This document shows positions 3,293-41,900 of a stretch of 64,000 nt of DNA, piece after piece. Position numbers and translations under genes: made by a program. The stretch covers positions 1,850,149 to 1,914,148 of the forward strand of contig NW_004955470.1 of NCBI RefSeq assembly GCF_000276665.1, read 5' to 3'. The stretch is from Chinchilla lanigera. Taxonomy: Eukaryota > Chordata > Mammalia > Rodentia > Chinchillidae. Every line of letters begins with the position of its first letter. Positions within the stretch are counted from its first letter, which is position 1. Under the pieces are notes generated by a model. That model was not told where the DNA came from. It did not search any database and saw nothing but the letters and a program-made list of their open reading frames with translations.

Positions 3293-3954
3293 ACTGAGTA
3301 TCTTCTGAGACATGCTCCTTCTGCTTCCTTCCCCCATTTATTCTCTGATCACTTCTTTTCCTGGCCTACTCTGAGTATTTCTCAATTTAGACTCTACTTC
3401 CAGAAGTTACTGCTTCAGTGTATGACTGTGTCCTAGAAAAGGGATTTGGTTGTTAGCATGAGATCATCAGGCCCAGACTATCCCAGCACCACCCACTGTT
3501 CTGCAGTCACCTTATATTCAAGTATGAAGCACAACTAGTAAAGCTCCCCGTCAGTTTCTCCGGTCATTCATAGATAGGCACCGGAGACTTCCACGTTGGA
3601 CAGGGATCCCTCCATTTCAGATTAATACCTGTTGGTAATTTGTTTTCTGGAAGTGGCTTTTCCTTCCTTTTGCTTCATTCCACACAGCTGCTGATTCTAC
3701 CCTAGTCTTGTTGCTGTCTATTGTTTTGTCCCAACCATTTGCGCTTTTGAAGTTCATAGGAATAACTTGCTATCCCATTTTTTGTAGATGTTATTGATGA
3801 GTTTTTAGTTTTGTTATCCTAATCTCCTAATTGCTTTGAGGGAAATTCAGCGAGTTTCAAAAACTGCTGCCACCTTTTCAGTTTTCTCAGCCAGCAGTGT
3901 CCCATTTCTTCCCTAAACTCACAATATTCTCCATCAACTACTCTATTGTTTTCT

Positions 3955-4270
3955 TTTTTTTTAAACAAGTTTTATTTTAAAGAGAAAACAACAAAATAAC
4001 AAGGAAAAACAAAACAACACAAAAACAATAAAAATGATACAAAATTTCAAAACAAGATAGGAATTAACAATAGTTGTTATAGTACATATTATCTTTAACA
4101 AAGTTGCTCAGATTACCAGATGTAAGAATGCAAGATTGATCAAACAATTAAAGAGAATAAAAAGTAATAAAAATTAGAAACGATACACAGCTTCACTAAA
4201 CAAGATGCTAGGAATTCAACAATGGTTGTTATATTGCACATTGTTGTCTTCAAATTAGCTGTTCTATTGT
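3955..4270 (-). mobile_element. L1 3' end, two related pieces
   Basis: A T-rich start is followed by A-rich antisense text. The block 'aacaatagttgttatagtac' recurs as 'aacaatggttgttatattgc' within the segment, and a related block occurs at 15375-15415. It looks like the 3' UTR of a lineage L1. Confidence 0.5.
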
Positions 4271-25842: not shown

Positions 25843-26640
25843 GTATGTCACATGCAAGCTTATACACCTGAATATTTGAAAGTGCACTTTCGTTTTTAAA
25901 ATTTTGCTACACATTGACTTGGATTACTTTTTGGTAATCTACTTTTATCATTACAGCATAGAAGTTGTTCCACCTTTTTATCCCTCTCAAAACTGCCAGA
26001 TACTTAAGATATTTCAAATTTTAGTGGTTTGTGATCTTTGCTTCTCCATTTAAAAGTGTTTGCATGCTTTATCAAAAGCAGTCCACATTTCTCCAAAAGT
26101 AAAACTTCAGCCATTCTTACATAATCCAGTTAGAATACAATGTATACTTGTATTCACAAAGCCTAGTTATGAAGTTCCAAATTTCCAATCCGTTTTCTAA
26201 ATAAGAATCAGATGCAAGGGATTTTGTTCCAGTAATTTTAATGAATGAACCCCCTCCCTTTTTAAATAATCAGATAATGTACACTCGCAATCTACCCCCA
26301 ACTACAGTATAATTTGTAAAACACCACCCCGACTGTTAAATGGGATCCAGACTGTGCCTCTTCAGGCACAGAAGTAAAACAGAACAAAATGAAAAATGCA
26401 GAAATCTCAGTTAAGTGTTCCAGGGAGCCAGACCCTCTCGGAAACCGGACTAGGCGGCACCATCCAGGGAGTTTCTAGTTCAGGAGACGACTGCTACGCT
26501 AAGGGCCACCAAGTCTCACGTCTTCGGTGTTCGCGCACTTAACTTGAAACGGGCCATCCGCAAGTGCAGGGGGCAAGCCCGCCGCAACACGCGGCCTCGG
26601 CGGGCAGCGGGCTGCGGGCTGCCCCGGGCCCCCCGCGCGC

Positions 26641-27057
26641 NNNNNNNNNNNNNNNNNNNNNNNNNNNNNNNNNNNNNNNNNNNNNNNNNNNNNNNNNNNN
26701 NNNNNNNNNNNNNNNNNNNNNNNNNNNNNNNNNNNNNNNNNNNNNNNNNNNNNNNNNNNNNNNNNNNNNNNNNNNNNNNNNNNNNNNNNNNNNNNNNNNN
26801 NNNNNNNNNNNNNNNNNNNNNNNNNNNNNNNNNNNNNNNNNNNNNNNNNNNNNNNNNNNNNNNNNNNNNNNNNNNNNNNNNNNNNNNNNNNNNNNNNNNN
26901 NNNNNNNNNNNNNNNNNNNNNNNNNNNNNNNNNNNNNNNNNNNNNNNNNNNNNNNNNNNNNNNNNNNNNNNNNNNNNNNNNNNNNNNNNNNNNNNNNNNN
27001 NNNNNNNNNNNNNNNNNNNNNNNNNNNNNNNNNNNNNNNNNNNNNNNNNNNNNNNNN
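26641..27057. other. ZC3H6: assembly gap (417 N), probable site of ZC3H6 exon 1
   Basis: The known mammalian N-terminus upstream of the exon 2 acidic block is not found on either side of the gap. A minus-strand ATG followed by ~10 codons and a donor in codon phase 2 is therefore expected inside it. This is an inference. Open frames running through the Ns are meaningless. Confidence 0.6.
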
Positions 27058-27360
27058 CGGGGCGCGGGGAGGACCCCTGCGCCGCCTGCGGGCTCCTGCT
27101 CCCGGCCGCCGCCGGCAGGTGACGAAGTGGTAAAAACTCACGGTTACTAGTGAGCGACACAGACACAGACTTTCCAGTCTATTAACAACCACGCCAGAGA
27201 GGTGGGACTCTAACTGCAAACACTGGGCAACGGCCCCGCGCTGCCGGCGCTGCCGCTCTAGTCTCTATTCGCCGCCGGTGGCTGAGGCGTGGGAGCGGCC
27301 GGGCGGCGTGCGGCGACGCGGGGATTTGGACAGTGGCCGTAACGGTGATTTCTCCTCACC

Positions 27361-27404
27361 AACATGGCGGCACCCGAGACAAGGCGGCTCGAGAAAATGG
27401 CGCC
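27361..27404 (+). promoter_or_regulatory. two YY1-like motifs
   Basis: 'aacatggcggc' at 27361-27371 and 'aaaatggcgcc' at 27394-27404 resemble the AAnATGGCGGC YY1 core, read on the strand opposite to ZC3H6. YY1 cores usually lie just downstream of a start site on the transcribed strand, so these could serve a divergent transcript. Confidence 0.55.
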
Positions 27405-27497
27405 GGCCGCAACACCTTGCCTGGGACTAAAGGGCAAGAGAGATTCCTCCGCGAGCCGCGGCCCTTGCCCAGCCCGCCGGGGCCGACAGCGTCTGCC

Positions 27498-27502
27498 ATT
27501 GG
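27498..27502 (-). promoter_or_regulatory. ZC3H6: CCAAT box (minus strand)
   Basis: 'gccattggctg' on the plus strand gives CCAAT on the ZC3H6 strand, inside the CpG island. Confidence 0.55.
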
Positions 27503-27887
27503 CTGAAGCTGCCTGTCGATCACATGCAGGGGCGGGCCGCCACCCGGCTCTGCGCAGCGGCGGAGGTGGCAGCCTGGTGGCGAGGCCAGGCAGCGAGAGG
27601 GACACGTCCGGATGGCGCTGGGAGTCGCGGGGGGAGGGGGAGGCGGCCTCACCGGAGCCTGCGGTCCCCCCAAGTCTCCGAGCCCATCTCTCCCCGAGGC
27701 TCCCGCCCAAGGGCTGACGGTTTCGTGATGCGTCAGGCCCACGGCCCCCAAAGCCGTTAGAAGGGGTGGGGTGAGACGGAGCTCCTGGCTGCAGCCTTGT
27801 CTCGTAGCCCGAGGGCCGTAACACCAATTTTGTCATAAAGGCTCATTATTATATTCTTTATTTCTATTGATGAATTATTACTTTGAT

Positions 27888-28259
27888 TTTATGAGTTTTG
27901 TTATATTACACAAGTACTTAGCAGGAAAAACATCAAAAAGATAAAAGTGTTGCGTTTTTAATATTTATTGTTTATAAAAAAGCATCAAAAATTTCAACTG
28001 TTTCAACGGTCGTTTGGTGTATAAAGTCTAAAAAATAACAAATTCTTGCATGAACTACAGTGAAAATACCAATAGAACGCTACAAAAACAGTAATCTTAA
28101 ATTATCAGACCTAAGGCAGTCTTCACACATAAGTGTATGAAGTGTATAAGTGTATCACTTCCAAACATAAGTGTATGCTCTCACTGACAGTACATGTATT
28201 ATCCTTTCTTGGCCTTTTTGTAGAACATACTTAACGTCTTGCTGGTCTCGCTGTTGTCA
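27888..28259 (-). repeat. piggyBac 3'-end tandem repeat, unit A (decayed)
   Basis: The most distal of three ~370-bp units. Its copy of the zinc-domain coding segment (about 28099-28195) has an in-frame stop (MYCQ then stop) and an internal expansion of 'ataagtgtat' to three copies. The last residues (CEDCL) are still readable. Confidence 0.8.
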
Positions 28260-28626
28260 GGAGGTCATTATACAATGTGTACTTAACAGGAGGAACATAA
28301 AATATTACTAAAATAAAGTTAAATTTTTTAGAAGTATTAATATGTTTAGAATAAACATCGTTTTCACATCAGCAGTGTACTTGCTCACAAAACGTGAAAG
28401 ATAACATCAATAATAAATTCATTATATGGCCTATAATGAAAATATCAATAGAATGCTACAACAAAAATAATCTTTGCTTCAATAGTCACACCCAAGGCAA
28501 TCTTCACACATAACAACTGCATGCTCCATGCACACGTCTCGCTTACACTGACAGCACATGTGTTTAGCTTTCCCTTACTATGTGGCAGGCCGTTCTTGTC
28601 ACCTCTCTTATCTTCCTGGTTTGTTA
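28260..28626 (-). pseudogene. piggyBac 3'-end tandem repeat, unit B (frameshifted zinc domain)
   Basis: The segment 28479-28561 still encodes HMCCQCKRDVCMEHAVVMCE and then DC, keeping the last six metal ligands and a stop. A one-base shift just upstream puts a stop before it, so it cannot be translated from the transposase frame as it stands. Confidence 0.8.
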
Positions 28627-28995
28627 GGAGCTTCCTACTAATAAAGTACAACATGCACTTAGCTGGAAAATAAGATATCAAAATAAAATTTTAAATATGT
28701 AATGAGTGCTTAGAATAGACATTTTTATAGCAGCTGTTTATTTGCTTACAAAACCTCAAAGATAGCATCAGAAATAAAAACCTCTGTGAATTACCATGTA
28801 AATACAAATAAAAGTCTACCAGAAAAATAAGCTTTGCTTTAACTGTCATACTCAAGGCAGTCTTCACATATGAAAACTGTGTGTTCCATACACAAGTGTC
28901 GCATACACTGATAGCACATATGTTTTGTTTTCCTGTCTTTTCCTGTAGGGCACAGTTGACATCTTTTTCGTTTTCCTGTTATCATAGTAGGTCTC
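28627..28995 (-). repeat. piggyBac 3'-end tandem repeat, unit C (functional copy)
   Basis: This unit includes the true 3' end of the transposase coding sequence (28839-28995) and its downstream flank. Shared landmarks with A and B: 'gcacttagctgg', 'caaagatagcatca' and 'aaggcagtcttcacat'. Confidence 0.8.
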
Positions 28996-30617
28996 TGTGA
29001 TGCTGTGCCTGCCTGTTCACCTGTCAGCTCACCAGTGTGCTCCACAATTTTTTTGCGTAATTCCCTGGGCAGAAACATTTTGTTTTTCCTCTGCTGTAAA
29101 TGTTCTCTTATGAGCTCCAGTCCCAATCTTCTAAGAAAATTTCTCCGTGATATTTTGCACTTGTTATTTTCTTTGTAAACTATGAAACTATTTATGCCAC
29201 ACATGTTTAGGACTGAGTAAAACACAACCATTGGCCAACGCTTTGTGTTTCGAGTGACATCATAGTTGCTGCATAACTCATCAACAACATCGACTCCGCC
29301 TTTGGTTTTGTTGTAGAAAGTTATCATCTCAGGCTTCTGTTTTGTTGAGGTTTCTCTATCAATATTTCCATCATAGTGCAGTGTTGACATCAGCAGTACC
29401 AGTTTATTTTTCTTTGCCATATACAAGGCCAATACTATATCTTTCTGAAATCCAAAGATTGTACTATACAATTCTCTGTTTTGAAATTGCAACATTTCAT
29501 TTGGAATTTCTGCTTTGTTCCTGTGTATAGTTCCTATGCTCGTCAACTTGTGCTCTGTTAGCAAATGTAACATCAATTGGAAATTGGTAAACCAATTGTT
29601 GAATGTCACATTCCGATTAGTTTGGGAGATGGGGGCAACAAGTCTGTCCACAACATCATTGGGTTTATTACTATATGAATGAGGACCTGGTGGCTGAGTT
29701 CCAGGATAAATTTCTAAATTGAAAGCATAATAAGTCTTCGAATCTACAAGGGCATAAATTTTTATGCCATATTTTGAAGGTTTTTTGGGTATAAACTGCC
29801 TGAAGCTACAGCGACCATGAAATGCTGCAAGATATTCATCAATAGTCATGTATTCAGATGGTGTATAAATTGCTTGACAATTACCCACAAATCTCTCAAA
29901 CCACAAGCGGATAGCAGCAAGATTATCAGTTCTTTTTCTTTCTTGGCGAGTGGTTTTGTCATCAAACCTCAGGCAATTTTGAAGGAAACCAAATCTCCTC
30001 AGTGTCATTGTTATCCTACAAACCTCAAGCCCGCATCCATCGCTTTTCCATAAGTCTTTTACATTCCTGCGACTACCATGAGAAAGCCCTGCTAAGTACA
30101 GCAGACCAATAAATGCTTTCAGCTCAGCTAGTGAGGTGTCATAATAAATACATTTTTGAGTATGGCTATTGGTGCATACAGAACGTTTTACTTGTATTTC
30201 AGCATTTGTGTATTTCACAACATTTTGTAGCATTTCATCTGTTATAAACAATTTCCAACATTGAATGGCAGCAGTGGCGTTCTGTCCAATAGGTTTCACC
30301 CCTGCCGAGATCCTCACTATATTTTCAGACCGAATTCTAACATTGGATTGTTCCATTTGGTTGCGTGACCATTTTGTACCATTTCTACCAGTCAAATATG
30401 TACTCACATTGCTATTTTCTTCATCGTTTGAATCACAGAGGTCTGCATTCCCTGTGTCTGTATCAGTCAATTCTTGCTCCATTTCACTGTCACAGGAACT
30501 TTGGCTCACATGGCCAACATCAAAGTCATTATCATCTTCAGCATCTATGCATGAATGATCTGATGATTCACTTTCAACCTCTTCCACAACTTGCAAATCT
30601 GGTTTTTCATGTGCCAT
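28839..30617 (-). CDS. piggyBac-type transposase, intact frame, second catalytic Asp replaced by Asn
   Basis: 592 codons, the length of known active piggyBac transposases. The start chosen is the ATG at 30617 in the strong context ACAATGG; the frame stays open 52 codons upstream to a TTG but has no ATG there that avoids the intron-like segment. Residues 1-90 are acidic and Ser-rich. The DDE_Tnp_1_7 (RNase H-like) core follows: Asp260 in MTIDEYL, then FIPKKPSKYGIKIYALVDS; VTFNNWFTN, where Asn340 (codon 29600-29598) stands for the catalytic Asp; and KGGVDVVDELC with Asp443 and Asp446. Then KRWPMVVFYS. The C-terminus (553-587) is a C-X2-C-X11-C-X2-C-X4-C-X2-H-X4-C-X2-C zinc domain, which binds transposon ends in this family. 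Asp-to-Asn at this place should abolish strand cleavage (inference). It could be a recently dead element or a domesticated gene. Confidence 0.93.
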   Translation of the reverse strand: MAHEKPDLQVVEEVESESSDHSCIDAEDDNDFDVGHVSQSSCDSEMEQELTDTDTGNADLCDSNDEENSNVSTYLTGRNGTKWSRNQMEQSNVRIRSENIVRISAGVKPIGQNATAAIQCWKLFITDEMLQNVVKYTNAEIQVKRSVCTNSHTQKCIYYDTSLAELKAFIGLLYLAGLSHGSRRNVKDLWKSDGCGLEVCRITMTLRRFGFLQNCLRFDDKTTRQERKRTDNLAAIRLWFERFVGNCQAIYTPSEYMTIDEYLAAFHGRCSFRQFIPKKPSKYGIKIYALVDSKTYYAFNLEIYPGTQPPGPHSYSNKPNDVVDRLVAPISQTNRNVTFNNWFTNFQLMLHLLTEHKLTSIGTIHRNKAEIPNEMLQFQNRELYSTIFGFQKDIVLALYMAKKNKLVLLMSTLHYDGNIDRETSTKQKPEMITFYNKTKGGVDVVDELCSNYDVTRNTKRWPMVVFYSVLNMCGINSFIVYKENNKCKISRRNFLRRLGLELIREHLQQRKNKMFLPRELRKKIVEHTGELTGEQAGTASQRPTMITGKRKRCQLCPTGKDRKTKHMCYQCMRHLCMEHTVFICEDCLEYDS

Positions 30618-30637: not shown

Positions 30638-30724
30638 CTACCAGAAAAATCAAAAGAAAACTTTGTTTAAAAACCATAAATGCATACAAATTTAGCAGTA
30701 AAGCATTTCGTGGGTAAAACTCAC
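30638..30724 (-). other. 87-nt intron-like segment 5' of transposase start
   Basis: On the minus strand CAACAG|GTGAGT opens it and 'tttgatttttctggtag' closes it, a good donor and a pyrimidine-rich acceptor. It has 29 codons' length and no stop in the transposase frame, so both spliced and unspliced forms keep the frame. Position and signals suggest a small 5' intron; splicing is not shown. Confidence 0.5.
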
Positions 30725-31068
30725 CTGTTGCTGCTTTGGATCTCTTGTACACACCTTGCTGTTCGTCTGTCAAGTGGGTGAATACACAGATGGGTGTTTT
30801 GCTTTCTCCAGAGGTAGCTACTGTGAGTCACACCCACATAAGAGTGATGTGGTAAACATATGCAAAACCTGTTAGACGGAGTGCTATGTGAATAGAAATT
30901 CCAGTTTGACACTTTTGCACACATGCACCAAGTGGGTAAGCACCAAGATTGCTTCCTGTTACCCCCAGGCACTGCTACTAAGACACACGGCTGGGTACTA
31001 TTACGCTAAAGTAAAACTTTACAGTAGGAAATTATTGTATGGGCTGTTGTAACCCAGTGTTATGCCCC
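30725..31068 (-). other. piggyBac 5' leader region
   Basis: This is the presumed promoter and 5' untranslated region between the right terminus and the intron-like segment. No TATA box is evident. A small unrelated frame (30721-30972) runs through it, ends at the donor, and does not join the transposase frame after splicing. Confidence 0.45.
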
Positions 31069-37628: not shown

Positions 37629-38329
37629 AGCAGAGTTCAGCGTCGTGGGGATATGAAGTAAACATTTTTTCTAGAGGACCACTTGGGGTAATACCAAGAG
37701 AATCTAGTTTCCTTCTATATCTGGTTTTCTTTGCTGTGTGCTTTCTTTCTAAATAAGAAAAACTACGTAAAGCAATAATTCGAGTTGTATAATATAGTTC
37801 TCTCCTCTGAAGAGGGGATATTATTGGCTTTTATAACATTAATTTTTCTTTTAATTTTTAGTAACGATTCAAGGGCAAAAGAATGTGATTGCCTATACTT
37901 CAACATGGAAAGTAGAATTTTCCTGGGAGAGATGTCTGGCTCCAAACAATTCCCTTGACTTGTCGTGGAATGGGCATTGATTCGTGCTAGGAGTCAGTCT
38001 TTTAAGTTACAGTAGCAAGTTAGATTCTCTGTCATTAGCCCAATCAGCAGTTTGTATTATCCCCTTATTTGGCCTCACACTAAGCAAAACTGAACAATTC
38101 TGTTTTCCAAGCATGCTCTCCCTTGCTGCCTTTTTATAGCAGATGCCCATTTACTTCCCAATTTCATCCTTTCCTGTGGAAATTATGTTAAGACTGAACT
38201 CAGATCCACGCCTTTCAATACGTTTGCTCAACCAGATGTGCATCCTCTTCGCGCTTGGTACTTTTAATTAAACTAACTTTCCTGCCTCGGTTATTTATGT
38301 ATTTATTTTCTGATTGTAGAAACCCTACA

Positions 38330-38445
38330 AGTTACATTACCGGTCTACACCTCTGTTTATTCATCTGAAAAATGCGAATGGTAATACTACCTAGCTTATA
38401 GAGCTTTCGCCAGGATTAAATCAGCTAAAATTGGAAACATTTCTA
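38330..38445 (+). mobile_element. MIR remnant
   Basis: 'tttattcatctgaaaaatgc' then 'aatggtaatactacctagct' and 'caggattaaat'. Confidence 0.65.
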
Positions 38446-38650
38446 AAATGATGGCGGCATGCTCAAATCAATGGGAGATGTTGCTGCCATTCCTTAAAAA
38501 TATCCTGATCGCCATTGACGACTTTTCACCAGAAGGACAAGAACCCTAATGTTAGGTTTAAAAATTTTGCTGGATTAAAAAAATTCTACTAGATTGTTGC
38601 CATAATATAGATGAAAATATACAGTACAAAGAGAACGACACAACGAGGAC

Positions 38651-38662
38651 TGCGCATGCGCA
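38651..38662. promoter_or_regulatory. NRF1 site
   Basis: 'tgcgcatgcgca' is the perfect palindromic NRF1 consensus. Confidence 0.85.
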
Positions 38663-38710
38663 ATGTGGACCGGAGGCAGGGCAAGAGTGGGCGTGGACGG
38701 AGTCGCGGAG

Positions 38711-38740
38711 GGCGGGGCGGGGCGGGGCGGCGCATGCGCC
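38711..38740 (+). promoter_or_regulatory. Sp1 GC-box run plus second NRF1 site
   Basis: 'ggcggggcggggcggggcgg' gives three overlapping GC boxes, followed at once by 'cgcatgcgcc'. Confidence 0.8.
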
Positions 38741-38853
38741 GGATGCGTGGGCGGGGCGTGCGGCCCTGCGTATTGCACGGCATCTCTTGACTCGATCTGG
38801 GTCTCAGGCTGTAGCTCCGTTGGTTGGCAACGCGGAGGCCGCTCGTGGGGGTC

Positions 38854-38930
38854 ATGGATTTTGAAAATCTTTTCTCAAAACCTCCCAACCCGGCCCTCGG
38901 CAAAAGACCGGCCCCGGACTCTGACGAAAG
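38854..38930 (+). CDS. ZC3H8: ZC3H8 coding exon 1
   Basis: ATG in context GTCATGG; residues 1-25 plus two bases of an Arg codon. The donor is GTGATC, a weaker form than GTRAGT. Confidence 0.93.
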
Positions 38931-41900
38931 GTGATCATTCTTCATCTTTTCTCTCTTTCGGTGTAGGTGCCGGCGGGCCCCGCCCCTTGGTGCCTTCGGA
39001 GGCGGCGCCGGGCTGCGCGGGGCTGGGGTCGCACGTGGCGAAGTCGCGCCGGGCGCGGGGAGAGGAGGCCGGGCGTGTAGAGCAGAGCGTCCCGCGGGGT
39101 CCCGGAGCCTCCTTCCTCGGCACCTGCCCTGCCCCCCGGCCCGTGGGGAGCCAGGCTCTGCGTGCGCGCCGCCCCGCGCTCGCCGGTGCTCGCTGCACCG
39201 TCCCGCGGGTCGCGGTTTCCCCCGGACACGTGCAAGGCTCTTCCGTGGCGAGCACAAAACCACAAGTTTATTTTTAAAAAACCGCAAATAACAGGGCGTG
39301 CTACTGCACGCCTGTAATCTAAGCACTCGGGAGGCTGAGGCAGGAGGATCACGGTCAGTGCGAGGCCACCCAGAGCCCCAAATCGAGACTCTGAAAAAGA
39401 ACAAACCAGGAAACCTCAGCAAATACCGTTCGGATTTAATGTGCCCTGTGATGTTGAACAATCAAGTTAAGATTGCTGGCCAAGTGGGTCCAATTTATGA
39501 ATCTCGTTTTTGAAGATGTATGTCCCTTACACACAGATATTCATTCACTTTCTATTTGAGCTCGAAGTGTTAAAAATCATCTCAAACCTTTTTCTTCGGT
39601 GTTTCCCAAGTTTTCCCTAAGCTGAAACCCAATCATACATCATTTCATTTCATTTATTTCCCTCATTCCCGCTATATCTCCAGTTCGGGTTCTTTTTATC
39701 TCTTTGTTTTGGTCTTTCAGAGCCTCGCTATGCAGTTCAGGCTGACCTTGAGCCCGGCTCGTTTTACCTCTTTGTTGCTCTCTGCTCTGTTCACTTCTCA
39801 TTGTCTCTGACATCTTAATTGAAATTATTACTTTAATTCAGGTTACCATTAAGAGCTTTACTGTGCACTTTATGTGCCCTACTTTCCATAATCCTCACAA
39901 CAATATTGATGAGAAAATGATGTTATCCTCGTTTTGTACAGTTGAGGAAACTGAGGCACGGAGAGGTTATGTAACCTACAAGCTCGCACGGTGTGAGTGG
40001 CAGAGCTAAGGTTAAGTCGCTCAGACAGTGACTTCCGGCCCTGTGATTTCATCACCCGGCTTCTCAGGCTAAACTGCTACAGTAAAAAGTAAGACCTGTA
40101 AGTGTTAGAAGGAGACAGGTACTACTTGGTGAACAATGTGAACTTCTGGGAAAAACAAGAGATGCTGATAAAACAGAGAATTCAACACAGTGGATCATCA
40201 CAGAATAAAATAGAAAAAATTATTTATTTTTGAGATACGGTCTTACTGTGTAGTGTAGGCTGGATTCAAACACGGTGATCCTCCTGCCCTAGCCTCCTGA
40301 GTGCTAGGATTACAGCCATGTGCCTCCATGCCTGGAAAAAAAATTTTTTTAAAACTACCAGTTTCAAAATATATTGGATGAACAATTCATTCACAAAAAC
40401 TTGACTGAAAGTAGAGGAAAAGACATGACTTACATTTGAAAGCTTCTCTTTTAACATTATTTTAAAATGCCAAATATGTTCTTCCTAGAAAAATAGTTGT
40501 TTTTTGTTTCTGTTATAGCTTTTAGTGCCTTTCAGAGGAGTGTGATTTTGGATAGAACTATTACTTTTTGGAAATGTTTATTATTCTGAAACAGATTTAC
40601 CTGACTGGTAATTATTGACAGAAATTTCAGAGAACTAATTTTTAAAACTTTTCTGTTTTGTTTTCTGACACACTGACACAAAACAGCGTGTCACAATGCT
40701 TTTGCTATAATCAATTTTGCTATAATACAGTTTTTTTTTCTTTGCTTTATGCACTCAAAAGGGTTGATCCTTCATGGTGTCTGGGTTTTTTCTTTTACTA
40801 GTTTGCGATGAAAATACTCATTTAACTTTTTTTTCAGCAGAGCATTGGAGTGTGCTGTGAACATGACTTTTAAGAAATTAAAAATGCAGAGATCGTTTTA
40901 GGAAAATAAAAAAAGACAGCTGGAGATTGCTCTGGTGATGCATACCTATAATCCTGAGGCTAGGGTTGCACTTAGAAACCCAGTCTCACCTGGTGAGACT
41001 GTCTCAAGAAATTTAAAAAAAGGGACTGGGGGTGTAGCTCAGTGTGAAGGCCCTGGGTTCAGTCTCCAGTACTGGACCGGGCAGTTGGGGGAGAAGACAT
41101 TTGGAGTTTTCCAGTTGGGAAATACGATGACCTGTGTATTCATATTGTTTGCCTGTTTTTCTTCTTGGCTGTTGATCTTCCTCTTTCAAATTTTATGATC
41201 TCTACAAATATTTTACTCACATTTTGTCTTCTGACTTTGTCCATCGTGTTATTTTTTAGTGCATTAAAAGTAGGGATTTTTTTTTCTTTGCTTTATGCAC
41301 TCAAAAGGGTTGATCCTTCATGGTGTCTGGGTTTTTTCTTTTACTAGTTTGTGATGAAAATACTCATTTAACTTTTTCTTTTCAGTTTTTTTGGGCACGT
41401 GCTACTTAGGAGGCATTGTAAGCCCAGGGATTATAGCAATAAATGAACAAAAGATATAAAAATCCTGCTATTCATAAAGTGTATATTTTGAGGGAGAGGA
41501 AGAGACAGACAATTTAAATATGTAGTGTTTCAGATGATAGTAAATTAATAAACGCCATGGAGAAAATGAGAGCAGACTAGGGAGTTAAGAACTACTTGTG
41601 AGCCGGGCGTGGTGGCACACACCTGTAATCCCAGCATGCAGGAGGCTGAGGCAGGAGGGTTGATGTGAGTTTGAGGTCTGCCTGGGCTACAAATTGAGTT
41701 CAAGGCCAGCCTGAACTGCATAGTGAAACTGTCTTAAGAAGGCAAAAAAAAGAATTAGTGGGATGGTAGGGAGGGTGTTGATATTTTAAAGACAGTTGAA
41801 AAGCCTCCAGGCTAACTTTAATTTTAAAGTTGTACCTGAGTCAGAACCTGATGGAGGTGCGGGGTGTTGGTGTGTGGGCAGGAGAGTGTTCTGTGTGGGG

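What the first reader, a model, noticed from the sequence alone, without database searches (positions are those of the whole stretch)
28839..30617. Intact piggyBac transposase with the second catalytic Asp changed to Asn
The sequence shows 592 open codons covering the whole DDE_Tnp_1_7 core and the cysteine-rich tail. In piggyBac the triad is Asp268, Asp346 and Asp447 (plus Asp450). Here the matching residues are Asp260, Asn340, Asp443 and Asp446. The change is GAC to AAC, one base (29598-29600). Loss of a catalytic carboxylate should kill excision and insertion, yet the frame has no stop or shift. Either the element died very recently, or a DNA-binding protein is being kept, as proposed for PGBD genes.
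Basis: partly seen in the sequence, partly recalled or inferred. Interest (0 to 1): 0.88.

Follow-up and report, generated by a model that had tools for sequence, protein, structure and literature searches.

The report
Catalytically dead domesticated piggyBac gene
A jumping-gene enzyme that invaded the ancestors of guinea-pig-like rodents lost a key cutting residue, yet its protein has been kept intact by natural selection, so it has probably become a host DNA-binding gene, much like PGBD3 in primates.

Summary
Window 30617-28839 is an open 592-codon piggyBac transposase with Asp260, Asn340, Asp443, Asp446; Asn340 aligns with piggyBac Asp346. It is not a recent dead insertion. Of ten genome matches covering at least 500 of 592 residues, three are open (this gene A and paralogues B, C); seven carry 13-28 stops. 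Gene A's lineage has dN/dS 0.28 (0.17-0.46) against 0.75 for 14 decayed copies, and its coding sequence changed half as fast as the element's non-coding ends. A guinea pig protein, 91% identical and sister in the tree, is also open and also has Asn, so the frame outlasted the catalytic loss. The Asp codon sat on a CpG (TTC-GAC): all 18 sampled dead copies lost it and 10 have Asn, so the mutation itself is ordinary decay, tolerated here while seven arginine CpGs were held. Zinc-binding residues and one end palindrome remain. Best reading: a host gene kept for DNA binding, convergent with primate PGBD3, which has Asn at the same triad position. Transcription, DNA binding and synteny of gene A are untested; one protein-only selection test was not significant (p=0.10).

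The parts
28839..30617 (-). gene A: open piggyBac transposase frame, 592 aa, ATG at 30617, TAA at 28841-28839
29598..29600 (-). codon 340 AAC (Asn) at the place of the second catalytic Asp (piggyBac Asp346); preceding codon TTC, so GAC here would make a CpG
29838..29840 (-). codon 260 GAT, first catalytic Asp, retained
29289..29291 (-). codon 443 GAT, third catalytic Asp, retained
29280..29282 (-). codon 446 GAT (piggyBac Asp450), retained
29523..29525 (-). codon 365 His in place of piggyBac Arg372 (target-DNA contact); also a lost CpG
28842..28961 (-). cysteine-rich zinc-binding domain, residues 553-592, all eight Cys/His ligand positions kept
30638..30724 (-). predicted 87-bp 5' leader intron (CAACAG|GTGAGT ... 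TTTTTCTGGTAG|AAGTAG); sites shared with genes B, C and many dead copies
   Evidence: prediction; splicing of the gene C orthologues inferred from P0005 and P0006
31069..31072 (-). TTAA target-site copy at the element's 5' end
31057..31068 (-). 5' terminal inverted repeat GGGGCATAACAC
31040..31056 (-). 17-bp imperfect palindrome TGGGTTACAACAGCCCA, bp 13-29 of the 5' end: candidate CRD-binding site
   Evidence: analogy to piggyBac bp 17-33 and the PGBD3 palindrome (passages)
27813..27824 (-). 3' terminal inverted repeat GTGTTACGGCCC (10 of 12 match the 5' end); no TTAA follows
27905..28990 (-). 3' tail: three diverged tandem copies, period about 360 bp, of the CRD-coding end plus 3' flank; a feature of the transposon family

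Best explanation
A piggyBac transposon of the insect type entered the ancestors of hystricognath rodents, multiplied, and died. At three loci its transposase frame was kept as a host gene (A, B, C). Gene A, in this window, is a domesticated transposase that can no longer transpose: Asn340 replaces the metal-binding Asp346, His365 replaces Arg372, and the 3' end of the element has lost its TTAA and palindrome. Selection has kept the rest of the protein, including the zinc-binding C-terminal domain. Most likely it works as a sequence-specific DNA-binding dimer that recognises palindromic transposon-end sites left across the genome, and so affects nearby chromatin or genes. SHOWN: open frame, catalytic substitution, purifying selection on the coding part, decay of sister copies, Asn and open frame also in guinea pig. 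INFERRED: loss of excision (from D346N data in T. ni piggyBac), DNA binding, targets and regulatory role. UNKNOWN: expression of gene A.
For: Ten matches cover at least 500 of 592 residues: 3 open, 7 with 13-28 stops (74 candidates were scored, so the count of copies is a lower bound; ten shorter stretches without a stop belong to places that carry stops elsewhere). 18 sampled dead copies: 3-17 stops, 0-18 frame-shifting indels in the part aligned. Three-point split with gene B as outgroup: window kN 0.028, kS 0.101, dN/dS 0.28 (95% 0.17-0.46); dead copies 0.118, 0.157, 0.75 (0.68-0.98), 14 dead copies used. Window branch 0.047 in the ORF against 0.085 (3') and 0.096 (5') in the non-coding element; dead copies 0.126 against 0.125 and 0.145. 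Seven Arg CpGs shared by B and C: window keeps 7 of 7, dead copies 4 of 116 cells. CpGs whose loss always changes an amino acid: window keeps 12 of 23, against 3 of 31 where a silent loss exists. Guinea pig P0001: 91% identical, sister with support 100, Asn at 340. CRD ligands kept. 5' palindrome kept. D346N cut piggyBac excision to 2.97e-5 against 1.4e-2 in one assay and 3.6e-4 against 3.2e-3 in another, and D-to-A mutants still bind the ends (PMC2533014, passages). PGBD3 has Asn352 at the second triad position and binds a palindrome by the 5' inverted repeat (PMC2268245 and PMC3459987, passages).
Against: The protein-only test for selection after the split from guinea pig was not significant: changes fall on conserved columns less than in dead copies, but Fisher p=0.10, or 0.05 with mid and high classes pooled. 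D346N left some excision in T. ni piggyBac, so 'dead' means crippled. No gene A protein was listed for Octodon or Heterocephalus (best 120 of 487 listed, clustered at 90%). Expression, binding and synteny were not tested; the genome-wide search for the element's end did not run. The 3' palindrome is deleted in this copy. Part of the window branch may date from the transposon phase.
Confidence: 0.74

Rival explanations
1. Plain dead insertion: the element was inserted, mutated at Asp340 and is decaying; the open frame is luck.
For: Asn340 is the common decay product of a CpG: 10 of 18 dead copies have it. The element still has its 5' TTAA and inverted repeats.
Against: No stop or frameshift in 592 codons, while the aligned parts of 18 dead copies have 3-17 stops; ORF branch half that of its own non-coding ends; seven constrained CpGs kept; open frame with Asn also in guinea pig.
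Confidence: 0.04
2. The frame was protected while it was still an active transposon and lost Asp340 only recently; no host function.
For: A transposase is under some selection while active. Genes B and C keep Asp340 in this genome.
Against: Guinea pig shares Asn340, so the loss is older than that split. No sampled copy is closer than 88.1%. After the split both frames stayed open.
Confidence: 0.05
3. Gene A is a dominant-negative brake on transposition: it occupies transposon ends or forms dead mixed dimers with active transposase.
For: End-binding parts are kept and catalysis is lost; genes B and C in the same genome keep the four Asp.
Against: The family looks long silent: all 18 sampled copies are at most 88.1% identical to gene A, so there would be little left to repress. 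Not tested.
Confidence: 0.1
4. Gene A is a non-catalytic subunit of a complex with the paralogues B and C, as PgmL proteins are with PiggyMac in Paramecium.
For: Three co-resident domesticated paralogues, one without and two with the full Asp set; precedent in PMC6143343 (passages).
Against: Orthologue proteins of B (Octodon: Asp260Ala, Asp340Asn) and C (Heterocephalus: Asp443Asn) have lost catalytic Asp themselves, and B and C carry other unusual changes such as Asn341Ser. No co-expression or interaction data.
Confidence: 0.07

Closest known systems
PGBD3 / CSB-PGBD3 (primates)
   Same: Domesticated piggyBac transposase with intact frame, the second Asp of the triad changed to Asn by G to A, decayed sister copies in the genome, palindrome just inside the 5' inverted repeat (PMC2268245, PMC3459987, passages).
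   Different: Separate event in rodents, from an insect-type element; no host fusion seen (not tested). In PGBD3 all four pseudogenes keep Asp (PMC2268245), here 10 of 18 dead copies also have Asn.
T. ni piggyBac transposase (PDB 6x67)
   Same: Full-length homology, E 2.5e-96; predicted fold matches 6x67 with E 5.4e-39, TM 0.85 by target length; zinc-binding tail.
   Different: Asp346 to Asn, Arg372 to His; not an active element.
Genes B and C of the same genome (L002, L003)
   Same: Open frames of the same family, 80% and 69% identical; dN/dS between the three genes 0.27-0.32.
   Different: Keep the four Asp in this genome; each groups with different dead copies.
piggyBac-like transposase of Anastrepha ludens (P0007)
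   Same: Closest named relative outside rodents, 61% identical over 94%.
   Different: Insect element, triad intact.
Paramecium PgmL1-5
   Same: Domesticated piggyBac proteins without a full triad, kept beside a catalytic paralogue (PMC6143343, passages).
   Different: Ciliate genome elimination; very distant; known complex.

Membership tests
piggyBac superfamily transposase | DDE_Tnp_1_7 core | tested here: met
   E 1.1e-75 over residues 118-478
piggyBac superfamily transposase | fold of piggyBac transposase | tested here: met
   AlphaFold2 model on 63 sequences, mean pLDDT 83.7; best PDB match 6x67. A first model on 10 sequences failed, pLDDT 36
piggyBac superfamily transposase | C-terminal cysteine-rich zinc domain | tested here: met
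   eight Cys/His positions kept
functional autonomous piggyBac transposon | catalytic Asp triad | tested here: not met
   Asn340
functional autonomous piggyBac transposon | inverted repeats and TTAA on both sides | tested here: not met
   5' TTAA and repeat kept; 3' repeat 10 of 12, TTAA absent
domesticated transposase gene | intact frame among decayed sister copies | tested here: met
   3 of 10 long matches open, 7 with 13-28 stops
domesticated transposase gene | purifying selection on the coding sequence | tested here: met
   dN/dS 0.28 (0.17-0.46) against 0.75; ORF against non-coding element. Protein-only test on the guinea pig pair p=0.10
domesticated transposase gene | orthologue at the same place in other species | tested here: inconclusive
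   sister protein in guinea pig; no DNA or synteny available
domesticated transposase gene | expression | not testable with these tools
   no RNA data for gene A; only an inference for gene C
PGBD3 | Asp to Asn at the second triad position | tested here: met
   PGBD3 from PMC2268245 passages
PGBD3 | descent from the same insertion (orthology) | not tested
   no PGBD3 sequence was compared; the top homologues listed are rodent and insect
PGBD3 | splicing to a host gene and binding to transposon-end palindromes | not testable with these tools
   acceptor and palindrome are present; no RNA or binding data

The most novel reading that the evidence does not exclude
One insect-type piggyBac invasion gave three separately kept transposase genes in hystricognath rodents, and in each of the three at least one species has since lost a catalytic Asp while the frame stayed open: A (this species and guinea pig, Asp340Asn), B (Octodon, Asp260Ala and Asp340Asn), C (Heterocephalus, Asp443Asn). 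[quoted passage not shown]
Probability: 0.15. Interest if true: 0.8.

Novelty: new member of a known kind. Interest (0 to 1): 0.62.

Why it matters
If right, it is a second mammalian case, apart from primate PGBD3, of a piggyBac transposase kept as a gene with Asn at the second catalytic position. It comes with an internal control that PGBD3 lacks: the catalytic Asp codon spans a CpG, so the genome tried the mutation many times, and in the kept gene selection held seven arginine CpGs but not this one. That makes 'kept for binding, not for cutting' directly testable. It also adds a clade where one transposon invasion left three long-lived genes, in a laboratory animal (the guinea pig) where they can be studied. 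In nine literature searches of the held library (listings seen) no title described piggyBac-derived genes of hystricognath rodents; subscription papers are not covered.

Tried and rejected
Tandem tail as a sign of domestication: the CRD end is triplicated at about 360 bp. I first took it for an old change at this locus; it is a family feature, seen as off-diagonal matches in 17 of 18 dead copies and in B and C (L020 does not reach the tail). Rejected as evidence. Alternative 3' CRD exons: copies 2 and 3 are interrupted by stops. Rejected.

Asp340Asn as a domestication event: rejected as special. No dead copy of 18 keeps the CpG; 10 have Asn, 5 Asp, 1 Glu, 1 Cys, 1 Lys, and the five with Asp have all lost the C before it. 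On two poorly resolved DNA trees Asn and Asp are mixed, 6 changes by Fitch with an ambiguous root, so I cannot say whether this copy was already Asn when it inserted.

Faster RNase H change in gene A than in gene B for the same species pair: 11 of 113 against 4 of 113, p=0.11. Not used.

Protein-only conservation test, window against guinea pig: p=0.10, 0.05 pooled. Weak; the same test is significant for the B and C pairs.

AlphaFold2 on 10 sequences failed; repeated on 63. Rfam scan of the window: no match.

Short non-autonomous copies (possible binding targets): the genome-wide DNA search for the element's ends never ran (see below), so their number is unknown.

Full report
WHAT IS THERE. 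The window carries, on the minus strand, a complete piggyBac-type transposon of about 3.26 kb. It starts with TTAA (31072-31069) and a 12-bp inverted repeat GGGGCATAACAC (31068-31057), and ends with GTGTTACGGCCC (27824-27813), which matches the 5' repeat at 10 of 12 positions and is not followed by TTAA. The 3' end abuts a CpG-rich stretch (26.5-27.8 kb). Inside is an open frame of 592 codons, 30617-28839, with the DDE_Tnp_1_7 core and homology to T. ni piggyBac over its length. The catalytic positions read Asp260, Asn340, Asp443, Asp446. A deep-alignment AlphaFold2 model (63 sequences, pLDDT 83.7) matches piggyBac 6x67 best (E 5.4e-39). An 87-bp 5' leader intron is predicted at 30724-30638; its sites are shared by genes B and C and by many dead copies.

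RELATIVES. A protein search (487 hits, best 120 listed) gives guinea pig P0001 (91%), P0002 (78%, source lgn, unnamed), guinea pig P0003 (76%), Octodon P0004 (77%), Heterocephalus P0005 (68%), P0006 (67%, lgn), then Anastrepha ludens (61%) and moths and other insects near 50%. So the family is of insect type and, among the named hits at or above 67%, is seen only in hystricognath rodents. Horizontal transfer is the natural inference; it was not tested further.

COPIES IN THE HOST GENOME. One search lists 120 matching stretches from 74 scored candidates (a lower bound by the tool's own note). Ten single matches cover at least 500 of 592 residues. Three have no stop: the window, L002 (80%) and L003 (69%). 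The other seven carry 13, 20, 21, 21, 23, 27 and 28 stops. Ten shorter stretches also lack stops, but each lies at a place where another stretch has them. I fetched B, C and the next 18 copies in rank order. In the window's frame these 18 have 3-17 stops and 0-18 frame-shifting indels in the part aligned (two were only partly covered), and 74.1-88.1% DNA identity to the window ORF.

SELECTION. Pairwise dN/dS is 0.32 (A-B), 0.30 (A-C) and 0.27 (B-C); the median between dead copies is 0.71. With B as outgroup the window lineage has kN 0.028, kS 0.101 and ratio 0.28 (bootstrap 95% 0.17-0.46); 14 dead copies have 0.118, 0.157 and 0.75 (0.68-0.98) (L016, L020, L024 and L026 left out as short or outside the subfamily; with all 18 the medians give 0.27 and 0.74). 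Some of the window branch may have passed while the element was mobile. The element's own non-coding parts give an internal control: window branch 0.047 in the ORF, 0.085 in the 3' and 0.096 in the 5' non-coding part; dead copies 0.126, 0.125 and 0.145 (15 dead copies).

AFTER THE CATALYTIC LOSS. Guinea pig P0001 groups with the window protein at support 100, has an open frame and has Asn at position 340. The loss is therefore older than the split of these species, or came in with the inserted copy, and both frames stayed open since. A test on proteins alone (do changes between the two avoid conserved columns more than in dead copies?) points the right way but is not significant: p=0.10, 0.05 with classes pooled.

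THE CpG EXPERIMENT. In genes B and C codons 339-340 read TTC GAC, so the catalytic Asp codon begins at a CpG. All 18 dead copies have lost that CpG (CA 9, GG 3, TG 3, TA 2, CT 1); 10 have Asn and 5 Asp, and all five with Asp have lost the C. Asn340 is thus an expected product of methyl-CpG decay. Seven arginine codons with a CpG in both B and C are all kept in the window, but in only 4 of 116 readable cells in dead copies. Of 54 inferred ancestral CpG sites (some doubtful), the window keeps 12 of 23 where any loss changes an amino acid and 3 of 31 where a silent loss exists (p=0.0008). Selection held most constrained CpGs in gene A but not the one under the catalytic Asp. His365, at piggyBac Arg372, is a second constrained CpG that was lost; Arg372/Lys375 contact target DNA in piggyBac (PMC7351741, passages).

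THREE GENES. A, B and C group with different dead copies (B with L024, C with L020), which suggests separate retention rather than duplication of one gene. In the listed proteins a catalytic Asp is lost in each: A as above; B in Octodon (Asp260Ala, Asp340Asn) but not in guinea pig P0003, P0002 or this genome; C in Heterocephalus (Asp443Asn) but not in P0006 or this genome. These rest on database proteins that I could not check against DNA. For gene C, P0005 and P0006 read straight across the predicted 5' intron (KLST|EV, RLSI|EV; genomic frame CVKLST before the donor), which suggests a spliced transcript; P0006 comes from a 2,424-bp contig whose nature, RNA or DNA, I do not know. Gene C also has CpG-rich DNA just upstream.

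HOW IT PROBABLY WORKS. In piggyBac, Asp268 and Asp346 hold the metal ion and the cysteine-rich domain dimer binds a palindrome at bp 17-33 of the end (PMC7351741, passages). D346N cuts excision strongly but not to zero, and Asp-to-Ala mutants still bind the ends (PMC2533014, passages). Gene A keeps the cysteine-rich domain and, in its own 5' end, a palindrome TGGGTTACAACAGCCCA at bp 13-29; the matching 3' palindrome of dead copies (perfect in L011 and L021) is deleted here. I infer a DNA-binding dimer that recognises relic ends. How many relic ends exist is unknown, because the genome-wide DNA search did not complete (and others).

COMPARISON. The nearest parallel is primate PGBD3: triad Asp270, Asn352, Asp467, the Asn from a G-to-A change, and binding to a palindrome 3 bp inside the 5' inverted repeat of MER85 elements (PMC2268245 and PMC3459987, passages). 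I did not compare PGBD3 sequence directly. This is a new member of a known kind, with convergence at the same residue.

VERDICT. Observation confirmed. Interest 0.62.

Noticed in passing
window 27905-28990: The element's 3' tail (CRD-coding end plus flank) is a diverged tandem triplication of period about 360 bp; 17 of 18 sampled dead copies and genes B and C show it too. Its role in the transposon is unknown.
   Followed up: partly
L010 about 3700-4121: Gene C lies directly behind CpG-rich DNA, as if the element had landed at a CpG-island promoter; two orthologue proteins read across the 5' intron, which suggests a spliced transcript.
   Followed up: partly
window 26500-27800 and 38200-39500: Two CpG-rich islands (CpG o/e 0.79-0.94 in 1-kb bins); the first abuts the 3' end of the element. 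The genes they serve were not identified; 26641-27057 reads N.
   Followed up: no
L002, L003 and homologues: Genes B and C have Ser at position 341, next to the catalytic Asp, where 111 of 113 other homologues have Asn; other near-invariant residues (R267H, R510K, R491Q) are also changed in some of them.
   Followed up: no
L003 and P0005, P0006: Gene C has His and Gln at the places of piggyBac Arg372 and Lys375, a pair whose double mutant excises but does not integrate (PMC7351741, passage).
   Followed up: no
gene B proteins: On gene B the window species groups with Octodon rather than guinea pig (support 93-100), which hints at the host's place among caviomorphs; one gene only.
   Followed up: no
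window 30740-30850: The predicted upstream exon is open in frame with the ORF after splicing and aligns to the longer N terminus of Heterocephalus P0005, but I saw no ATG in that stretch.
   Followed up: partly
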